A model generated the notes under the pieces. The model made no database searches. It worked only from the letters and a program-made list of their open reading frames with translations, and was not told where the DNA came from. A stretch of 5,383 nt of DNA from NCBI GenBank assembly GCA_946479725.1, contig CAMLHB010000164.1:1-5383 (forward strand). The letters run 5' to 3'. Source of the DNA: an uncultured Actinomycetes bacterium (GTDB lineage Bacteria; Actinomycetota; Thermoleophilia; Solirubrobacterales; 70-9). Shown piece after piece: positions 1 through 4,894 of the stretch (its first letter is position 1; each line of letters opens with the position of its first letter). The position numbers and the translations under genes are program-made.

Positions 1-989
1 CCCATCAGCAGCCGCTGCATCGGCTGCCCCGAGTCGAGGTCGGTCTCGATCTCGTCGAAGGCCTTGAGCTGGTCGCCGGTGGGCTCGAAGGGGAGCGAGT
101 CGAGCCAGCGGGCGACGAGGTCGCCGGGCTTGCCGAAGCGGGGTGCCGGGCGGGCGGTTCGGTGGGTGCGCTTGCGGGTGGCGAGGAGGGCCTGGTGGAG
201 GAAGAGCTCTTCGAAGCGGAGGCGGGTGCGGGCTTCCTCGAGGTCTTTCTCTCCTCTTGGGAAGTGGATGGTCTTGAGGGTGTCTCCGATGGCGGCCAGG
301 TGGCGGCGGGTGCGGAGGGTTGAGGGGAGGCCCTCTATGGCGTTCGAGGAGAGTTCGATTGCCTGTTTGGCCCAGTCGCGGATCTGTGAAGGACGAAGCG
401 ACTCGGGGGACGAGTGCCTAGGGACAAGGGTTTCGGGCTGCGGGTCCTGTCGAGGGCTGTTCGGGGACCCCTGCGCTGGATGCTCGGGGTCCCCGGCGCC
501 CTCGCCACCCGCAGAAGCTGAGTCGGTCATCAACTCCCATTCGTTCACTGCGTAGCCTCGGGCGGAGCGTTTGCCCGTGAGGAGGAGCTGGGTTCCGGGG
601 GTCAGCTTTGAAGCTATCCACGGCTGGTTGAACCAGGTCGCTCTTACGTGGTCGGTGGCGTCTCCGACTTTGACGCTGACCATGCCGAGGCGGCCTCGGC
701 GGAAGGGGCGGGGCTGGGGTCCCAGGACCTCGACTTGGACGGTTGCGGTCTCGCCGGGGGTGACGTCAGCTAGCTGTCTGATCCGCAGGTCCCTGTGGCG
801 CCTTGGGATGTGGAAGAGGAGGTCGCCGACGGTGCGGAGGCCGGCGGCGGCTGCGGCTTCGGCGGTCTTCGGGCCGACGCCCTTGAGGGCGCCGAGGCCC
901 TGGGAGAGGACGCTGGGGCGGGGCCAGTGGACCGGGGCGTCGAGCAGCTCGGCGCGGCCCAGCTCGCGTTCGCCGGCGAAGGACCGCAC
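1..989 (-). CDS. recG: ATP-dependent DNA helicase RecG, N-terminal part (cut by left window edge)
   Basis: RecG is a superfamily 2 helicase that remodels stalled replication forks and Holliday junctions. The visible 329 residues cover the DNA-binding wedge region. A helix-hairpin-helix-like start (ALKGVGPKTAEAAAAAGL, about 34-51) leads to VGDLLFHIPRRHRD, then an OB-fold stretch ending in WFNQPW and LLLTGKRSARGY. The linker (IHFPRGEKDLEEARTRLRFEELFL) and helicase Q-motif region (LPFEPTGDQLKAFDEI) follow. The window ends at MQRLLMG, where the family next has its Walker A motif, so the helicase core is outside. The GTG at 989 is chosen because it overlaps the upstream TAG stop (TAGTG), but it has no clear ribosome site. 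In-frame GTGs at 1013 and 1010 are alternatives, 12-15 nt after GAGGGGGG. About residues 155-186 form a Gly/Pro/Ser-rich insert coded by an inverted repeat. Codons ending in A or T, and AGA/AGG, look commoner than in the upstream gene. Family assignment is firm; the exact start is not. Confidence 0.93.
   Translation of the reverse strand, partial: MRSFAGERELGRAELLDAPVHWPRPSVLSQGLGALKGVGPKTAEAAAAAGLRTVGDLLFHIPRRHRDLRIRQLADVTPGETATVQVEVLGPQPRPFRRGRLGMVSVKVGDATDHVRATWFNQPWIASKLTPGTQLLLTGKRSARGYAVNEWELMTDSASAGGEGAGDPEHPAQGSPNSPRQDPQPETLVPRHSSPESLRPSQIRDWAKQAIELSSNAIEGLPSTLRTRRHLAAIGDTLKTIHFPRGEKDLEEARTRLRFEELFLHQALLATRKRTHRTARPAPRFGKPGDLVARWLDSLPFEPTGDQLKAFDEIETDLDSGQPMQRLLM
438..514. repeat. Nested inverted repeat (potential hairpin) inside recG
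   Basis: Three pairs of arms nest around one centre. CTGCGGGT (438-445) matches ACCCGCAG (507-514). CGAGGGC (451-457) matches GCCCTCG (498-504). CGGGGACCCC (462-471) matches GGGGTCCCCG (486-495). The loop is 14 nt (472-485), and the internal loops are asymmetric (5 versus 2 nt, and 4 versus 2 nt). This gives 25 perfect, mostly G-C pairs over 77 bp. The innermost arms are themselves nearly palindromic. The repeat coincides with the Gly/Pro/Ser-rich insert of RecG (about residues 159-185) and keeps the frame open. It could be a palindromic mobile element, a structured part of the recG message, or chance in GC-rich low-complexity coding DNA. The arms are read directly from the sequence; the role is unknown. 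Confidence 0.72.
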
Positions 990-2617
990 TACTGGGCGGC
1001 CAGCAGCCACCACCAGCTCGGCTGTCCCCCCTCGTGGGTCTCGACCTCGACCCCGTCGGGCAGGTGGGTGTCGAGCTCGCCGAGCGGGATTGGGGCGCCC
1101 TCGCCGGCGATCAGGGTGACGATCTCGGCCTCGGCGGCGAGCTGCTCGAGGGTCTGGGTCAGGGTCGAGCCGGCGCCGCCCCAGGCGACGATCTCGCCGG
1201 CGACGAAGCCGACCGCGTCGCCCTTCCTGAACCGCCCCTGGGCGTCGTCGCGGGCCGCCGGGGCGACGCCGCCGGTGGCGACCTCGGCCAGCGCCTCCCC
1301 CAGCCGTTCGGCATTCTCGTCCAGCGTCGCCTCGGGGTCGAGCTCGACCAGCGCCAGCAGGCTCGCCTGCTGCGAGGTCGCCGCCACCACCCGCGCCGGC
1401 TTGTCGGAGAGCTCGCAGGCGCGCTCGGCGGCCATCACCACGTTGGAGGAGCTGGGCAGGACGAGGACCTCCTCGGCGGCGACGCTGTGGATGCCGGCGA
1501 GCAGCTCGTAGGTGGAGGGGTTGAGGGTCTCGCCGCCGGGGACGACGTGGGCGCCGAGCTCGCCGAAGAGGCGCTGCAGTCCGTCCCCGGCGGCGACCGC
1601 GACGACGCCGGTGCGGCCGCTGAGGCGGGCGTCGCGCTCGGCCATCTGCTCGCGCATGTCGGCGACGTCGAGGTTGGTCACCTCGCCGACCCCGTCGAAG
1701 ACAGCGACCGCGGCCTCGGGCTCGTCGGTGTGGACGTGGACCTTGAGGGTGACGTCGTCGCCGACGACGAGGACGGAGTCGCCGAGGCCCTCCAGGCGCG
1801 GCAGGAACCGGCGGTTCTGCAGGCCCTTGCCGGAGACGATGAAGTTGGTGCAGTAGCGGAAGCGGCTGTCCTCGTGGTGGGGCAGGCTGCGGCGCGGCGG
1901 CTCGTGGTGCTGGATCTCGGGGACCTCGGCGCCGTCGCCGCGGAGGCCGGCGACGACCCCGGCGAGGATGAGGACGAGGCCGTGGCCGCCGGCGTCGACG
2001 ACGCCGGACTCGCGCAGGACCTCGAGCTGCTCCGGGGTCTTGGCGACGGCCCGCTCGCCGTCGGCGATCGCCCGCTCCAAGACCTCGGCCAGCACCGCGT
2101 CCTGCTCCTCTTCGGAGACGTCGCGGCCGAGCCGCTGCTTCTCCTGGTCGAGGTGGGCGAGCTGGCGGGAGAGCGAGTGGGCCATCTCGCGGAAGACGGT
2201 CAGCATCGTCCCCTCGGCCGGGTCCCGGACCGAGTCGTAGGCGGCGTCGGCGGCGCTGGCGAAAGCGGCGGCGACCAGGGTCGGGTCGATCAGCTCACCG
2301 GGCCGGGAGGCGAGCTCCTCGGCGGCGCCGCGGACGATCTGGCTGAGGATGACGCCGGAGTTCCCCCGCGCCCCCATCAGCGCCGCCCGCGCCAGCGCCT
2401 GGACCAGCTCGGTGCGGCCGACCTCGTCGACTTCCTGGCCGTCGAGCCGGTCCAGCTCCTCCATCACCGCGCGCATCGTCATCGCCATGTTGTCGCCGGT
2501 GTCGCCGTCGGCGACCGGGAAGACGTTGAGGTCGTTGACCTCCTGGCGGCGGGCCTCGAGAGAGGCGTATGCAGAGCTGACTACCCGGCGGAAGCGGGCG
2601 ATCTGGGGTTCGGGCAT
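989..2617 (-). CDS. DAK2/DegV-domain protein, fatty acid kinase FakA-like (YloV family)
   Basis: Members studied in Firmicutes (FakA) are cytosolic kinases that use ATP to phosphorylate a fatty acid held by a FakB carrier, feeding acyl-phosphate to phospholipid synthesis. The N-terminal DhaL domain (about 1-220) has NVFPVADGDTGDNM (31-44), with the Mg-binding Asp cluster D37/D39, then GARGNSGVILSQ (82-93), EGTMLTV (135-141) and ESGVVDAGGHGL (203-214). The middle domain has RYCTNF (C256) and KVHVHTDEP (H294, H296), matching the Cys/His/His metal site of FakA as I recall it. The rest is the DegV-like C-terminal domain, ending with HEGGQPSWWWLLAAQ, typical of the family. At 542 residues it is full length. 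The ATG at 2617 puts the Asp motif at the usual distance from the N-terminus. Its only nearby purine-rich sequence, GGTGG, abuts the ATG, so it may be nearly leaderless. recG begins at its stop codon. No fakB is in the window, and fatty acid kinase activity in actinobacteria is inferred from the family. Confidence 0.9.
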   Translation of the reverse strand: MPEPQIARFRRVVSSAYASLEARRQEVNDLNVFPVADGDTGDNMAMTMRAVMEELDRLDGQEVDEVGRTELVQALARAALMGARGNSGVILSQIVRGAAEELASRPGELIDPTLVAAAFASAADAAYDSVRDPAEGTMLTVFREMAHSLSRQLAHLDQEKQRLGRDVSEEEQDAVLAEVLERAIADGERAVAKTPEQLEVLRESGVVDAGGHGLVLILAGVVAGLRGDGAEVPEIQHHEPPRRSLPHHEDSRFRYCTNFIVSGKGLQNRRFLPRLEGLGDSVLVVGDDVTLKVHVHTDEPEAAVAVFDGVGEVTNLDVADMREQMAERDARLSGRTGVVAVAAGDGLQRLFGELGAHVVPGGETLNPSTYELLAGIHSVAAEEVLVLPSSSNVVMAAERACELSDKPARVVAATSQQASLLALVELDPEATLDENAERLGEALAEVATGGVAPAARDDAQGRFRKGDAVGFVAGEIVAWGGAGSTLTQTLEQLAAEAEIVTLIAGEGAPIPLGELDTHLPDGVEVETHEGGQPSWWWLLAAQ

Positions 2618-2682: not shown

Positions 2683-2688
2683 TACGTT
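2683..2688 (+). promoter_or_regulatory. Possible -10 hexamer (TACGTT) for the MMPL gene
   Basis: TACGTT fits TANNNT and ends 10 nt before the ATG at 2699, placing a predicted transcription start within a few bases of the start codon. TTCAGG (2656-2661) is the nearest -35-like hexamer, at a 21-nt spacing, which is poor. The same bases contain the TTG that would otherwise be an upstream start for the MMPL frame, which argues for the ATG. Confidence 0.28.
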
Positions 2689-2698
2689 GCCCGCTCCA

Positions 2699-4894
2699 AT
2701 GCGTCGCTTCGCCACCTGGATCACCGGTCACCGCGCTGCCGTCATCGCCGCCTGGATCGTCACCCTCGTCGTGATGGGGATCCTCGCCGGCTCGGCGGGC
2801 TCCGACTTCAGCGAAGAATTCAGCCTCCCCAGCTCCGATTCCAAGGACGCTCTCGACCTGCTCGAAAACCGCTTCCCCGCGCAGGCGGGGGACACGGTGC
2901 AGATCGTCTACAAGGCGGAATCGGGGGTCGAGGCGCCGGCGGTCAAACAGGCGATGGGACCGGTCTTCCAAAAGGTCGAAGCCCTCCCCCACGTCAGCGA
3001 AGTCGCCAGCCCCTATGAAGAGGGCGGCGCCGGAGCGGTCAGCGACGACGGCAAGATCGCCTACGCGACCGCTCAGTTCAACGTCACCACCGACAAGCTG
3101 AACGACGGCGAAGTGAAGAAGATCATGGACACGGCGCAGGCCGCCGGCGCCGACGGGCTCCAGGTCGAGGTCGGCGGCAGCCCCGCCGAGGAAGTCCGGG
3201 GCGAAGAAGAAGAAGGCGGCTCGGAGATCATCGGCGTGCTCGCCGCCGTCGTCATCTTGCTGATCAGCTTCGGCTCGGTGGTCGCGATGGGCCTGCCGAT
3301 CCTGACCGCGCTGTTCGCGCTCGGCGTCGGAATCTGCGTCATCACCCTCTTCACCCACGTCTTCAACACCGCCGAGTTCGCGCCGCAGCTGGCGTTCATG
3401 ATCGGGCTCGGCGTCGGCGTCGACTACGCGCTCTTCATCCTCACCCGCTTCCGCAACGGGCTTGACGAGGGGCTTGACAAGCGCGCGGCGGCGATCGCCG
3501 CCGTCGACACCGCCGGCCGGGCCGTGCTGTTCGCGGGGATCACGGTGATGATCTCGCTGATGGGGATGATGCTGCTCGGCCTTCCCTTCCTCTACGGGGT
3601 CGCGACGGCGGCGGCGATCGCGGTCCTCTTCACGATGATCGCGGCGCTGACGCTGCTGCCCGCCCTGCTGGCGATCGCCGGCAACTGGGTCAACCGGATC
3701 CGCCTGCCGTTCTTCGGCAGGGGCGCCCGCAGCATCGACGAGGGTGGCTGGTGGTTCCGCTGGAGCCAGCGAATCCAGCAGCGGCCGTGGCTGGCGGCGC
3801 TGCTCTCCGGGGCGCTACTGATCGCCCTCTGCATCCCCACCCTCTCGCTGCGACTCGGCAGCAACGACGCCGGCACCGACCCGGCGGGGACGACCACGCG
3901 CGAAGCCTACGACCTGCTCGCCGAAGGCTTCGGCCCCGGCTTCAACGGCCCCTTCGTGATCGCCGCCGAACTCCCCGAAAAGGGGAACGACGAACCTCTG
4001 CAGCAGCTGCGGACCGAGCTGAAGGGCGAAGAAGGCGTCGAGGCCGTCACCGACGTCAGCCTCAACCCGGACAAGACCGTCGGGGTCTTCCAGCTCTACC
4101 CGACGACCTCGCCGCAGAGCGCCGACACCACCGACCTGCTCGACCGCATCCGCAACAACACGATCCCGCCGGTCGAGGAAGCGACCGGGGCGCAGATCCA
4201 CGTCGGCGGCATCAACGCGATCTTCGAGGACTTCGGCAACGCGATCGCCGGCAAGCTGCCGCTCTTCATCGGCGTCGTCGTCCTGCTCTCGGCGCTGCTG
4301 CTGATGATCGTCTTCCGCTCGCTGCTGGTGCCGCTGAAGGCGGTGCTGATGAACCTACTCTCGATCGGCGCCGCCTTCGGACTGATCGTCGCCGTCTTCC
4401 AGTGGGGCTGGGGCGCCAGCATCATCGGCGTCGACAGCACCGGCCCGATCATCTCCTTCTTCCCGATCTTCCTCTTCTCGATCGTCTTCGGGCTCTCGAT
4501 GGACTACGAGGTCTTCCTGATGTCGCGGATCCACGAGGAGTGGGAGCACCGCAAGGACGCCAGCCTCGCTGTAACCCGCGGCCTCGCCCTCACCGGCCGC
4601 GTGATCACCGCCGCCGCGGCGATCATGGTCGCCGTCTTCGCCTCCTTCATGCTGGGCGAAGACCGGATCATCAAGCTCTTCGGCCTCGGCCTGGCCTCGG
4701 CGGTCTTCATCGACGCCGTGATCATCCGCTCGGTCCTCGTCCCGGCGATCATGCAGCTGCTCGGCAAGCGCGCCTGGTGGTTCCCCAGCTCGCTCGACCG
4801 CATCCTCCCCCGCCTCCACGTCGAGCCCGACGAGGGCGACCCCTCGCCGACCGGCGAGCATCCGGTGGTCGCGGCGGCTGAGTCGGACGGCTAG
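2699..4894 (+). CDS. MMPL family (RND superfamily) membrane transporter, YdfJ-like
   Basis: This is a 731-residue inner-membrane transporter with the two-repeat RND layout. TM1 (about 13-31) and a first extracytoplasmic loop precede TM2-6 (about 177-195, 198-222, 231-251, 275-295, 303-327). TM7 (about 365-385), a second loop (about 390-515) and TM8-12 (from about 520) follow, then a soluble 40-residue tail. Each repeat carries the Asp-Tyr pair expected for proton coupling in MmpL-type transporters: GVGVDYALF (D242-Y243) and GLSMDYEVFL (D602-Y603). The length fits YdfJ-like proteins and is shorter than mycobacterial MmpL lipid exporters (about 950). Substrate is unknown; relatives move lipids or hydrophobic compounds. 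The ATG at 2699 gives the usual MRRFATWITGHRAAVIAAW opening; a TTG at 2687 would add four residues and is less likely. An acidic patch (EEVRGEEEEGGSE, 164-176) sits just before TM2. No periplasmic adaptor or outer-membrane gene is nearby. Its stop codon overlaps that of the converging gene. Confidence 0.92.
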   Translation: MRRFATWITGHRAAVIAAWIVTLVVMGILAGSAGSDFSEEFSLPSSDSKDALDLLENRFPAQAGDTVQIVYKAESGVEAPAVKQAMGPVFQKVEALPHVSEVASPYEEGGAGAVSDDGKIAYATAQFNVTTDKLNDGEVKKIMDTAQAAGADGLQVEVGGSPAEEVRGEEEEGGSEIIGVLAAVVILLISFGSVVAMGLPILTALFALGVGICVITLFTHVFNTAEFAPQLAFMIGLGVGVDYALFILTRFRNGLDEGLDKRAAAIAAVDTAGRAVLFAGITVMISLMGMMLLGLPFLYGVATAAAIAVLFTMIAALTLLPALLAIAGNWVNRIRLPFFGRGARSIDEGGWWFRWSQRIQQRPWLAALLSGALLIALCIPTLSLRLGSNDAGTDPAGTTTREAYDLLAEGFGPGFNGPFVIAAELPEKGNDEPLQQLRTELKGEEGVEAVTDVSLNPDKTVGVFQLYPTTSPQSADTTDLLDRIRNNTIPPVEEATGAQIHVGGINAIFEDFGNAIAGKLPLFIGVVVLLSALLLMIVFRSLLVPLKAVLMNLLSIGAAFGLIVAVFQWGWGASIIGVDSTGPIISFFPIFLFSIVFGLSMDYEVFLMSRIHEEWEHRKDASLAVTRGLALTGRVITAAAAIMVAVFASFMLGEDRIIKLFGLGLASAVFIDAVIIRSVLVPAIMQLLGKRAWWFPSSLDRILPRLHVEPDEGDPSPTGEHPVVAAAESDG

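What the first reader, a model, noticed from the sequence alone, without database searches (positions are those of the whole stretch)
438..514. Nested palindromic element carried in frame inside recG
Three nested perfect arm pairs (8, 7 and 10 bp, 25 pairs in total) close on a 14-nt loop, and the whole 77-bp structure sits in the coding sequence of a housekeeping helicase without breaking the frame. The segment it encodes has no counterpart in the RecG proteins I recall, falling between the OB-fold and the helicase linker. In-frame palindromic insertions into housekeeping genes are known from Rickettsia palindromic elements; a comparable family in a high-GC actinobacterium would be notable. 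GC-rich codon bias could also create some pairing by chance, but three co-axial perfect arm pairs are hard to explain that way.
Basis: partly seen in the sequence, partly recalled or inferred. Interest (0 to 1): 0.7.

Follow-up and report, generated by a model that had tools for sequence, protein, structure and literature searches.

The report
Dispersed in-frame palindromic repeat in recG
A short DNA hairpin inside the gene for a DNA-repair helicase belongs to a repeat family, not found described in our searches, that is scattered through a group of actinobacteria and often lies within genes without breaking them.

Summary
Window 438-514 is a 25-bp nested palindrome in the recG linker, far stabler than dinucleotide shuffles (0 of 200) or peptide-preserving codon shuffles (0 of 2000 on the mRNA strand). 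It belongs to a dispersed family. A covariance model of 25 copies (covariation 0.323, shuffled 0.077) matches 21 of 50 genomes of the nearest relative's family, up to 41 matches in one 2.2-Mb genome, and few genomes outside it in shallower searches. The outer stem and an unpaired CCTGT/CC loop are conserved; inner stems covary. Copies lie in both orientations, in spacers and in frame within, or in terminal extensions of, genes such as recG, dnaX, E2 acyltransferases and S5. Of 34 copies scored in-gene, 29 use two of the six frames. RecG homologues lack the insert, or carry it in the opposite orientation. Known analogues are Rickettsia palindromic elements and REP/MITEs; this family differs in host and motif, and no Y1 (RAYT) transposase was found in 13 of the 21 element-bearing genomes, the ones searched. 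Mobiliser and target duplication remain unknown.

The parts
438..514 (+). palindromic element, conserved core; orientation set by the family motif GGGTCCTGT
   Evidence: covariance model match 60.6 bits, E 5.6e-9 (this copy is one of the 25 used to build the model)
438..445 (+). outer arm, 5' side (CTGCGGGT)
   Evidence: family-conserved stem
507..514 (+). outer arm, 3' side (ACCCGCAG)
   Evidence: pair 439/513 is T-A here and C-G in L001
446..450 (+). conserved unpaired side of the internal loop, CCTGT
   Evidence: 54-55 of 56 copies keep C, C, T, G and 49 of 56 keep the last T in G047/G048 (copies found by the model, which favours it)
505..506 (+). conserved opposite side of the internal loop, CC
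   Evidence: 55 of 56 at each position
451..457 (+). middle arm, 5' side (CGAGGGC)
498..504 (+). middle arm, 3' side (GCCCTCG)
462..471 (+). inner arm, 5' side (CGGGGACCCC)
   Evidence: inner stems differ between copies
486..495 (+). inner arm, 3' side (GGGGTCCCCG)
472..485 (+). 14-nt loop
421..437 (+). probable left tail of the element (GGGACAAGGGTTTCGGG), resembling a tail like GGGACNNGGGCGCTCNGGC seen in many copies of the related genomes
   Evidence: flank profile of 73 copies; weaker in the G047/G048 copies seen
3..1013 (-). recG (N-terminal part, runs off the window), host gene of the element

Best explanation
The 77-bp segment is one copy of a dispersed, probably mobile, palindromic repeat family in Solirubrobacterales-type actinobacteria. 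The unit is 69-97 nt long in all but two of 129 copies (39 and 51 nt). It has an outer stem like CSGCGGGT/ACCCGCSG, a conserved asymmetric internal loop (CCTGT against CC), then a variable inner hairpin. Copies persist where they do little harm: in spacers, and in frame in linkers or terminal extensions of proteins. Two of its six reading frames are mostly stop-free and encode Pro/Ala/Gly/Ser-rich peptides, which is probably how it survives in genes. Shown: dispersal, both orientations, covariation, presence/absence in homologues, frame use. Inferred: it moves as hairpin-forming DNA recognised through the conserved ends and loop, in trans, by an enzyme not yet identified; resident copies are later overwritten by the genome's current subtype, by gene conversion or re-insertion at the same site.
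For: CGGGTCCTGTCG occurs 38 times in 9 relative genomes against 7 for the reversed control; of the 30 loci returned, 24 close into a matching hairpin. Covariation over 18 pairs, 25 copies: 0.323 against 0.077 shuffled (0 of 500) and at most 0.090 slid. Model: 72 rows, 70 distinct places, in 8 of 9 genomes; 21 of 50 in the family; 23 of 232 in the order, 21 of them the same family genomes; 3 of 396 in a phylum sample, one of them G001. G001 and G002 hold 15 of 120 and 8 of 55 copy pairs with inner identity 0.95 or more, with different flanks in the copies inspected. RecG linker: same orientation in window and L001, opposite in L002, L003, L005, absent in others. Occupied/unoccupied comparisons at recG, guaA, a spacer before an E2 gene and two further sites. 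Of 34 copies with the same conserved frame on both sides, 21 use frame (+,1) and 8 frame (-,2); these frames hold stops in 15 and 17 of 129 copies, the other four in 37-68. At four of nine G001/G002 orthologous sites the G001 copies are all the 90-nt and the G002 copies all the 78-nt subtype.
Against: No target-site duplication or sharp edge could be read; the genomes compared are too diverged. No Y1/RAYT gene in the 13 element-bearing genomes searched (8 others not searched) and a reverse transcriptase in only 2 of those 13, so no mobiliser is known. The same sites are occupied in up to six genomes, more stable than expected of an actively moving element. With means instead of maxima, orthologous copies (0.679) are slightly more alike than random copies of the two genomes (0.626) and as alike as copies within one genome (0.678), so homogenisation is only part of the picture. 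Length is a multiple of three in 28 of 34 in-gene copies but also in 72 of 95 others, so it is a property of the subtypes, not proof of selection in genes. The window copy uses an unusual frame (-,0), in which 68 of 129 copies hold a stop.
Confidence: 0.82

Rival explanations
1. Functional sites: the hairpins are binding sites for a protein (or RNA regulatory hairpins) kept by selection at fixed loci, not selfish DNA.
For: The CCTGT/CC loop is nearly invariant in copies read in different frames and strands. Orthologous sites are occupied in several genomes (26 site clusters). Hosts include many housekeeping genes.
Against: 29 of 50 family genomes show no match at E 0.001, with 92 candidates scored each. 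Within one recG clade L003/L005 have it and L004/L007/L008 do not. 18 of 121 orthologous occupied pairs are in opposite orientation. The conserved loop may equally be the recognition site of the mobilising enzyme.
Confidence: 0.2
2. A product of selection on the protein: a Pro/Ala/Gly-rich linker whose GC-rich codons happen to pair.
For: The peptide is of low complexity and the linker is predicted disordered. 85% of residues in 33 in-gene inserts are P, A, G, S, T, E, D or Q.
Against: Codon shuffles of the same peptide do not fold as well (0 of 2000 mRNA strand, 5 of 2000 other strand). The same DNA is read in different frames and on both strands, giving unrelated peptides. Copies also lie in spacers.
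Confidence: 0.02
3. GTAG-type REP element mobilised by a RAYT transposase encoded elsewhere in the genome.
For: Short dispersed palindromes in spacers and sometimes in genes are typical of REPs (PMC3733652, passages).
Against: By inspection, no conserved GTAG tag in the aligned copies and their 30-nt flanks. Y1_Tnp PF01797 absent in 13 of 13 element-bearing genomes searched, while 5 of 14 control genomes ring. The genomes are MAGs and may be incomplete.
Confidence: 0.08
4. Intrinsic transcription terminators.
For: Strong GC hairpins; some copies sit inside larger flanking palindromes (12 of 129 have flanking arms of 8 bp or more against about 1.5% in mismatched flanks).
Against: Many copies are inside open genes (34 scored in-gene), and in the profile of 73 downstream flanks T never exceeds 0.32 at any of the 30 positions.
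Confidence: 0.02

Closest known systems
Rickettsia palindromic elements (RPE) and Wolbachia palindromic elements
   Same: Palindromic, dispersed, many copies in frame inside conserved genes in exposed parts of the protein, orthologues often occupied at the same locus, hot spots not excluded (PMC2229807 and PMC3767692, passages read).
   Different: Host is an actinobacterial family, not Rickettsiales; shorter unit (mostly 69-97 nt against 100-150 bp); conserved GCGGGTCCTGTC...GCCACCCGC ends with an internal loop; subtype differences at the same sites between genomes. No RPE sequence was aligned.
REP elements with RAYT transposases (GTAG), and CGTC-tagged REPs
   Same: Short palindromes, dispersed, some intragenic including DNA-repair genes; CGTC REPs also lack a dedicated transposase (PMC3733652, passages).
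   Different: By inspection no conserved GTAG or CGTC end tag in the aligned copies and flanks, no Y1 transposase in the element-bearing genomes searched, longer hairpin.
MITEs such as Correia/NEMIS, ERIC, YPAL
   Same: Small, hairpin-forming, with open reading frames that can fuse to host genes (PMC2229807, passages).
   Different: No target-site duplication shown and no parent transposon found here; GC-rich.

Membership tests
Rickettsia palindromic element | dispersed palindromic repeat, many copies per genome | tested here: met
   up to 41 matches in one genome (rows on both strands of one place may be included), structure and covariation
Rickettsia palindromic element | inserted in frame in conserved protein genes | tested here: met
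   34 of 129 copies with the same conserved frame on both flanks (one, L211, has stops and is probably a spacer copy); between domains in RecG, DnaX, two E2 acyltransferases and Lhr
Rickettsia palindromic element | lies in exposed or flexible part of the protein | tested here: met
   RecG insert residues 165-193 pLDDT below 50; tested for RecG only
Rickettsia palindromic element | host in Rickettsia or Wolbachia | tested here: not met
   nearest recG relatives are Solirubrobacterales/actinobacterial MAGs by record title
Rickettsia palindromic element | sequence homology to a described RPE subfamily | not tested
   no RPE sequence was fetched or aligned
REP with RAYT | GTAG tag at one end | tested here: not met
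   by inspection, no such tag conserved in the 25-copy alignment or the 30-nt flanks of 73 copies
REP with RAYT | Y1/RAYT transposase gene in the genome | tested here: not met
   0 of 13 element-bearing genomes searched; MAGs may be incomplete; 8 further element-bearing genomes not searched
MITE | terminal inverted repeats | tested here: met
   8-bp outer stem, 97% of cells paired
MITE | target-site duplication | tested here: inconclusive
   17 alignments inspected, 12 of them informative at 5 sites, flanks too diverged to read edges
MITE | parent transposon with the same ends | not tested
   only Y1_Tnp and RVT_1 families were searched
Rfam RNA family | match above gathering score | tested here: not met
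   none in the window and none at the elements of the five loci given

The most novel reading that the evidence does not exclude
A new class of in-frame palindromic mobile DNA in Actinomycetota whose copies keep their sites across genomes while their interior, and sometimes their orientation, is replaced genome-wide by the current subtype. The site would act as a landing pad and the element as an exchangeable cassette recognised by its conserved ends and CCTGT loop, driven by an undescribed enzyme.
Probability: 0.35. Interest if true: 0.85.

Novelty: new variant of a known kind. Interest (0 to 1): 0.72.

Why it matters
Frequent in-frame palindromic elements in conserved genes are best known from Rickettsia and its kin. 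A second case, with a different motif, in high-GC actinobacteria would suggest that this route of protein change is more general. It offers many natural experiments: the same RecG, DnaX or ribosomal protein with and without the insert. It also poses a testable question: what moves an element where no Y1 transposase was found, and how do copies at fixed sites come to share a subtype within one genome?

Tried and rejected
Own-genome search: not held. Plasmid records: no match to window 1-1100. Rfam: none in the window. First gapped pattern N{10,39}: one copy only, because the usual spacing is longer. Viral contigs: no match for one 22-mer; two 18-mer matches with model scores of about 19 bits, E about 0.05, judged chance. 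Reverse transcriptase as mobiliser: in only 2 of 13 element-bearing genomes searched. GC3-based frame calling was replaced by conservation-based calling. 'Closer to paralogue than orthologue' (96 of 117 pairs) was weakened by its own control with means instead of maxima. Flanking palindromes as a target preference: enriched but in few copies. Of 458 flank comparisons, 244 had a listed element and 214 none; the 214 were not counted as empty sites, because some are second loci of occupied places or hold degenerate copies. I inspected 17 alignments: 12, at 5 sites, look unoccupied; 5 are ambiguous, and in two of those (L176, L108) the relative holds a variant or remnant copy. From (106 rows) I kept 73 elements: dropped were opposite-strand repeats, second loci of the same place, and the truncated L107; (58 rows) I kept 56. 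Two kept copies are weak (L175 25.7 bits, L176 33.9 bits).

Full report
What is there. The window carries, on the minus strand, 337 codons from the N-terminal part of a recG gene (3-1013; RecG_wedge). Between the outer and middle arms lies an asymmetric internal loop, CCTGT (446-450) against CC (505-506). None of 200 dinucleotide shuffles folds as well (z -5.98). Of codon shuffles that keep the peptide, 0 of 2000 fold as well on the mRNA strand and 5 of 2000 on the other strand (0 and 0 of 1000 with recG's own codon usage).

Relatives of recG. A scan of genome contigs gave 103 related places, of which the best 80 were kept as loci. The closest is L001 (Solirubrobacterales MAG, 84% identity), then L002 (71%). 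L001 has the same hairpin in the same orientation. Six bases differ: two form one compensatory pair (439/513), two make wobble pairs, one breaks a pair and one is unpaired. L002 has a hairpin at the same linker with the same ends and loop, in the opposite orientation and with a different inner stem. L003 and L005 carry a third version; L004, L007 and L008, in the same recG clade, do not. L006, L011-L013, L015 and G048's recG also lack it. L009 and L010 have an insert that the model does not find at E 0.1 but whose loop resembles that of L172 by eye; I take it for a decayed copy. Codon-shuffle tests, mRNA strand and other strand, of 500: L001 1 and 10, L002 0 and 1, L003 0 and 6, L005 33 and 207.

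A dispersed family. CGGGTCCTGTCG occurs 38 times in nine relative genomes against 7 for the reversed control. Of the 30 loci returned, 24 close into a hairpin with shared ends and different interiors. From 25 copies (26 less the short L081) I counted 18 pairs: 88.9% of cells paired, 11 pairs with changes on both sides, covariation 0.323 against 0.077 (sd 0.014) shuffled and 0.021-0.090 slid. Most of these copies were found by the left motif and all were delimited by pairing, which favours the outer stem, so the inner-stem covariation is the telling part. Model R1 found 72 rows, 70 distinct places, in 8 of 9 genomes; only 150 candidates per genome were scored. In the family of G001, 21 of 50 genomes match at E 0.001 (92 candidates scored each), led by G047 (41 matches) and G048 (34). 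In the order, 23 of 232 match at E 1e-4, 21 of them the same (19 candidates scored each). In a phylum sample, 3 of 396 match including G001 (11 candidates scored each). These wide searches are shallow, so low-copy genomes may be missed. Among 56 copies of G047/G048, C, C, T, G of the loop are kept in 54-55, the last T in 49, and each base of the opposite CC in 55. Many copies, the window's included, also have a left tail like GGGACNNGGGCGCTCNGGC.

Where the copies lie. For 129 copies I called frames by tblastn of both flanks against loci of other genomes: 34 have the same conserved frame on both sides, 26 only left, 22 only right, 21 different frames, 26 none. Of the 34, 21 use frame (+,1), 8 (-,2), two (-,0) (window and L001), and one each (+,0), (-,1), (+,2); the last, L211, has stops and is probably a spacer copy. 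Frames (+,1) and (-,2) hold a stop in 15 and 17 of 129 copies, the other four in 37-68. Length is a multiple of three in 100 of 129 copies: 28 of 34 in-gene and 72 of 95 others.

Host genes. I ran Pfam on 17 open frames through copies, besides three window proteins; 13 had a family. By position the copy lies between domains in DnaX, two E2 acyltransferases and Lhr helicase, and at the junction of an Fe-S (DHODB) and a dihydroorotate dehydrogenase domain, which may be two genes. It lies in C-terminal tails of ribosomal proteins S5 and S2 and an S1-domain protein. It lies in N-terminal extensions of S9, GMP synthase, a ParA/MinD-type ATPase, GrpE and FtsZ; there the true start codon is not proven, so some of these copies may be upstream of the gene. 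Four frames had no family. Eight of the 17 (S9, S5, S2, GuaA, ParA-type, GrpE, FtsZ and one E2) were not among the 34, whose test asks for both flanks; for them the frame rests on the open frame shared with the domain. The RecG insert is modelled as disordered.

Occupied and unoccupied sites. Twelve of 17 alignments, at five sites, show an occupied and an apparently unoccupied homologue: recG, the start of guaA, the spacer before an E2 gene (where the genes nearly abut in the unoccupied relatives), a spacer in G048 where the relative has its own hairpin, and one site in G047. Edges are blurred by divergence. The other five are ambiguous. Twelve of 129 copies have flanking inverted arms of 8 bp or more, against about 1.5% for mismatched flanks.

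Same sites, different copies. There are 121 orthologous occupied pairs in 26 site clusters, with up to six genomes per cluster; 18 pairs are in opposite orientation. At four of nine sites shared by G001 and G002 the G001 copies are all the 90-nt subtype and the G002 copies all the 78-nt subtype; another of the nine is the same subtype at 0.95 inner identity but inverted. In 96 of 117 pairs (window left out) each copy's best paralogue is closer than the orthologue, in 5 the orthologue is closer than both, and 16 are mixed or tied. That comparison uses maxima. With means the orthologous pairs average 0.679, other cross-genome copies 0.626, and other copies within a genome 0.678; the orthologue exceeds the cross-genome mean in 86 of 117 pairs and 21 of 26 clusters. 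So part of the similarity is inherited by site and part is shared within genomes.

Mobiliser. Y1_Tnp is absent in the 13 element-bearing genomes searched and present in one of 11 genomes without matches. A reverse transcriptase is in 2 of the 13 and 1 of the 11. How the family moves is open; that an enzyme recognises the ends and loop is inference.

Literature. I read passages (not whole texts) of PMC2229807, PMC3767692, PMC3733652, PMC12306157 and PMC10969869. RPEs share the in-frame habit and the same-locus occupation of orthologues. Searches listed no report that I recognised as this family; the library holds open-licence papers only, and I saw listings for the rest.

Verdict.

Noticed in passing
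L014:3475-3613: The same recG linker in another relative carries a threefold tandem in-frame repeat (PGHDPASSASRPV-like), so this linker takes up unrelated insertions too.
   Followed up: no
L009 and L010, recG linker: A long GC-rich hairpin without the CCTGTC motif, whose loop resembles that of the L172 element by eye; perhaps a decayed copy.
   Followed up: partly
L219:6960-7110: c-di-AMP riboswitch (RF00379, 74.8 bits) about 600 bases from a copy of the element.
   Followed up: no
G003:C56:1892-2509, G046:C89:2733-3368: Reverse transcriptases (RVT_1) in two element-bearing genomes.
   Followed up: no
window 2687-4894 and 989-2617: MMPL-family gene and a FakA-like (DAK2 domain) gene next to recG; ordinary.
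   Followed up: no
L205:14288-14377 and L213:2880-2966: Copies that sit within a flanking perfect inverted repeat (12 and 8 bp), as if placed in the loop of an existing hairpin.
   Followed up: partly
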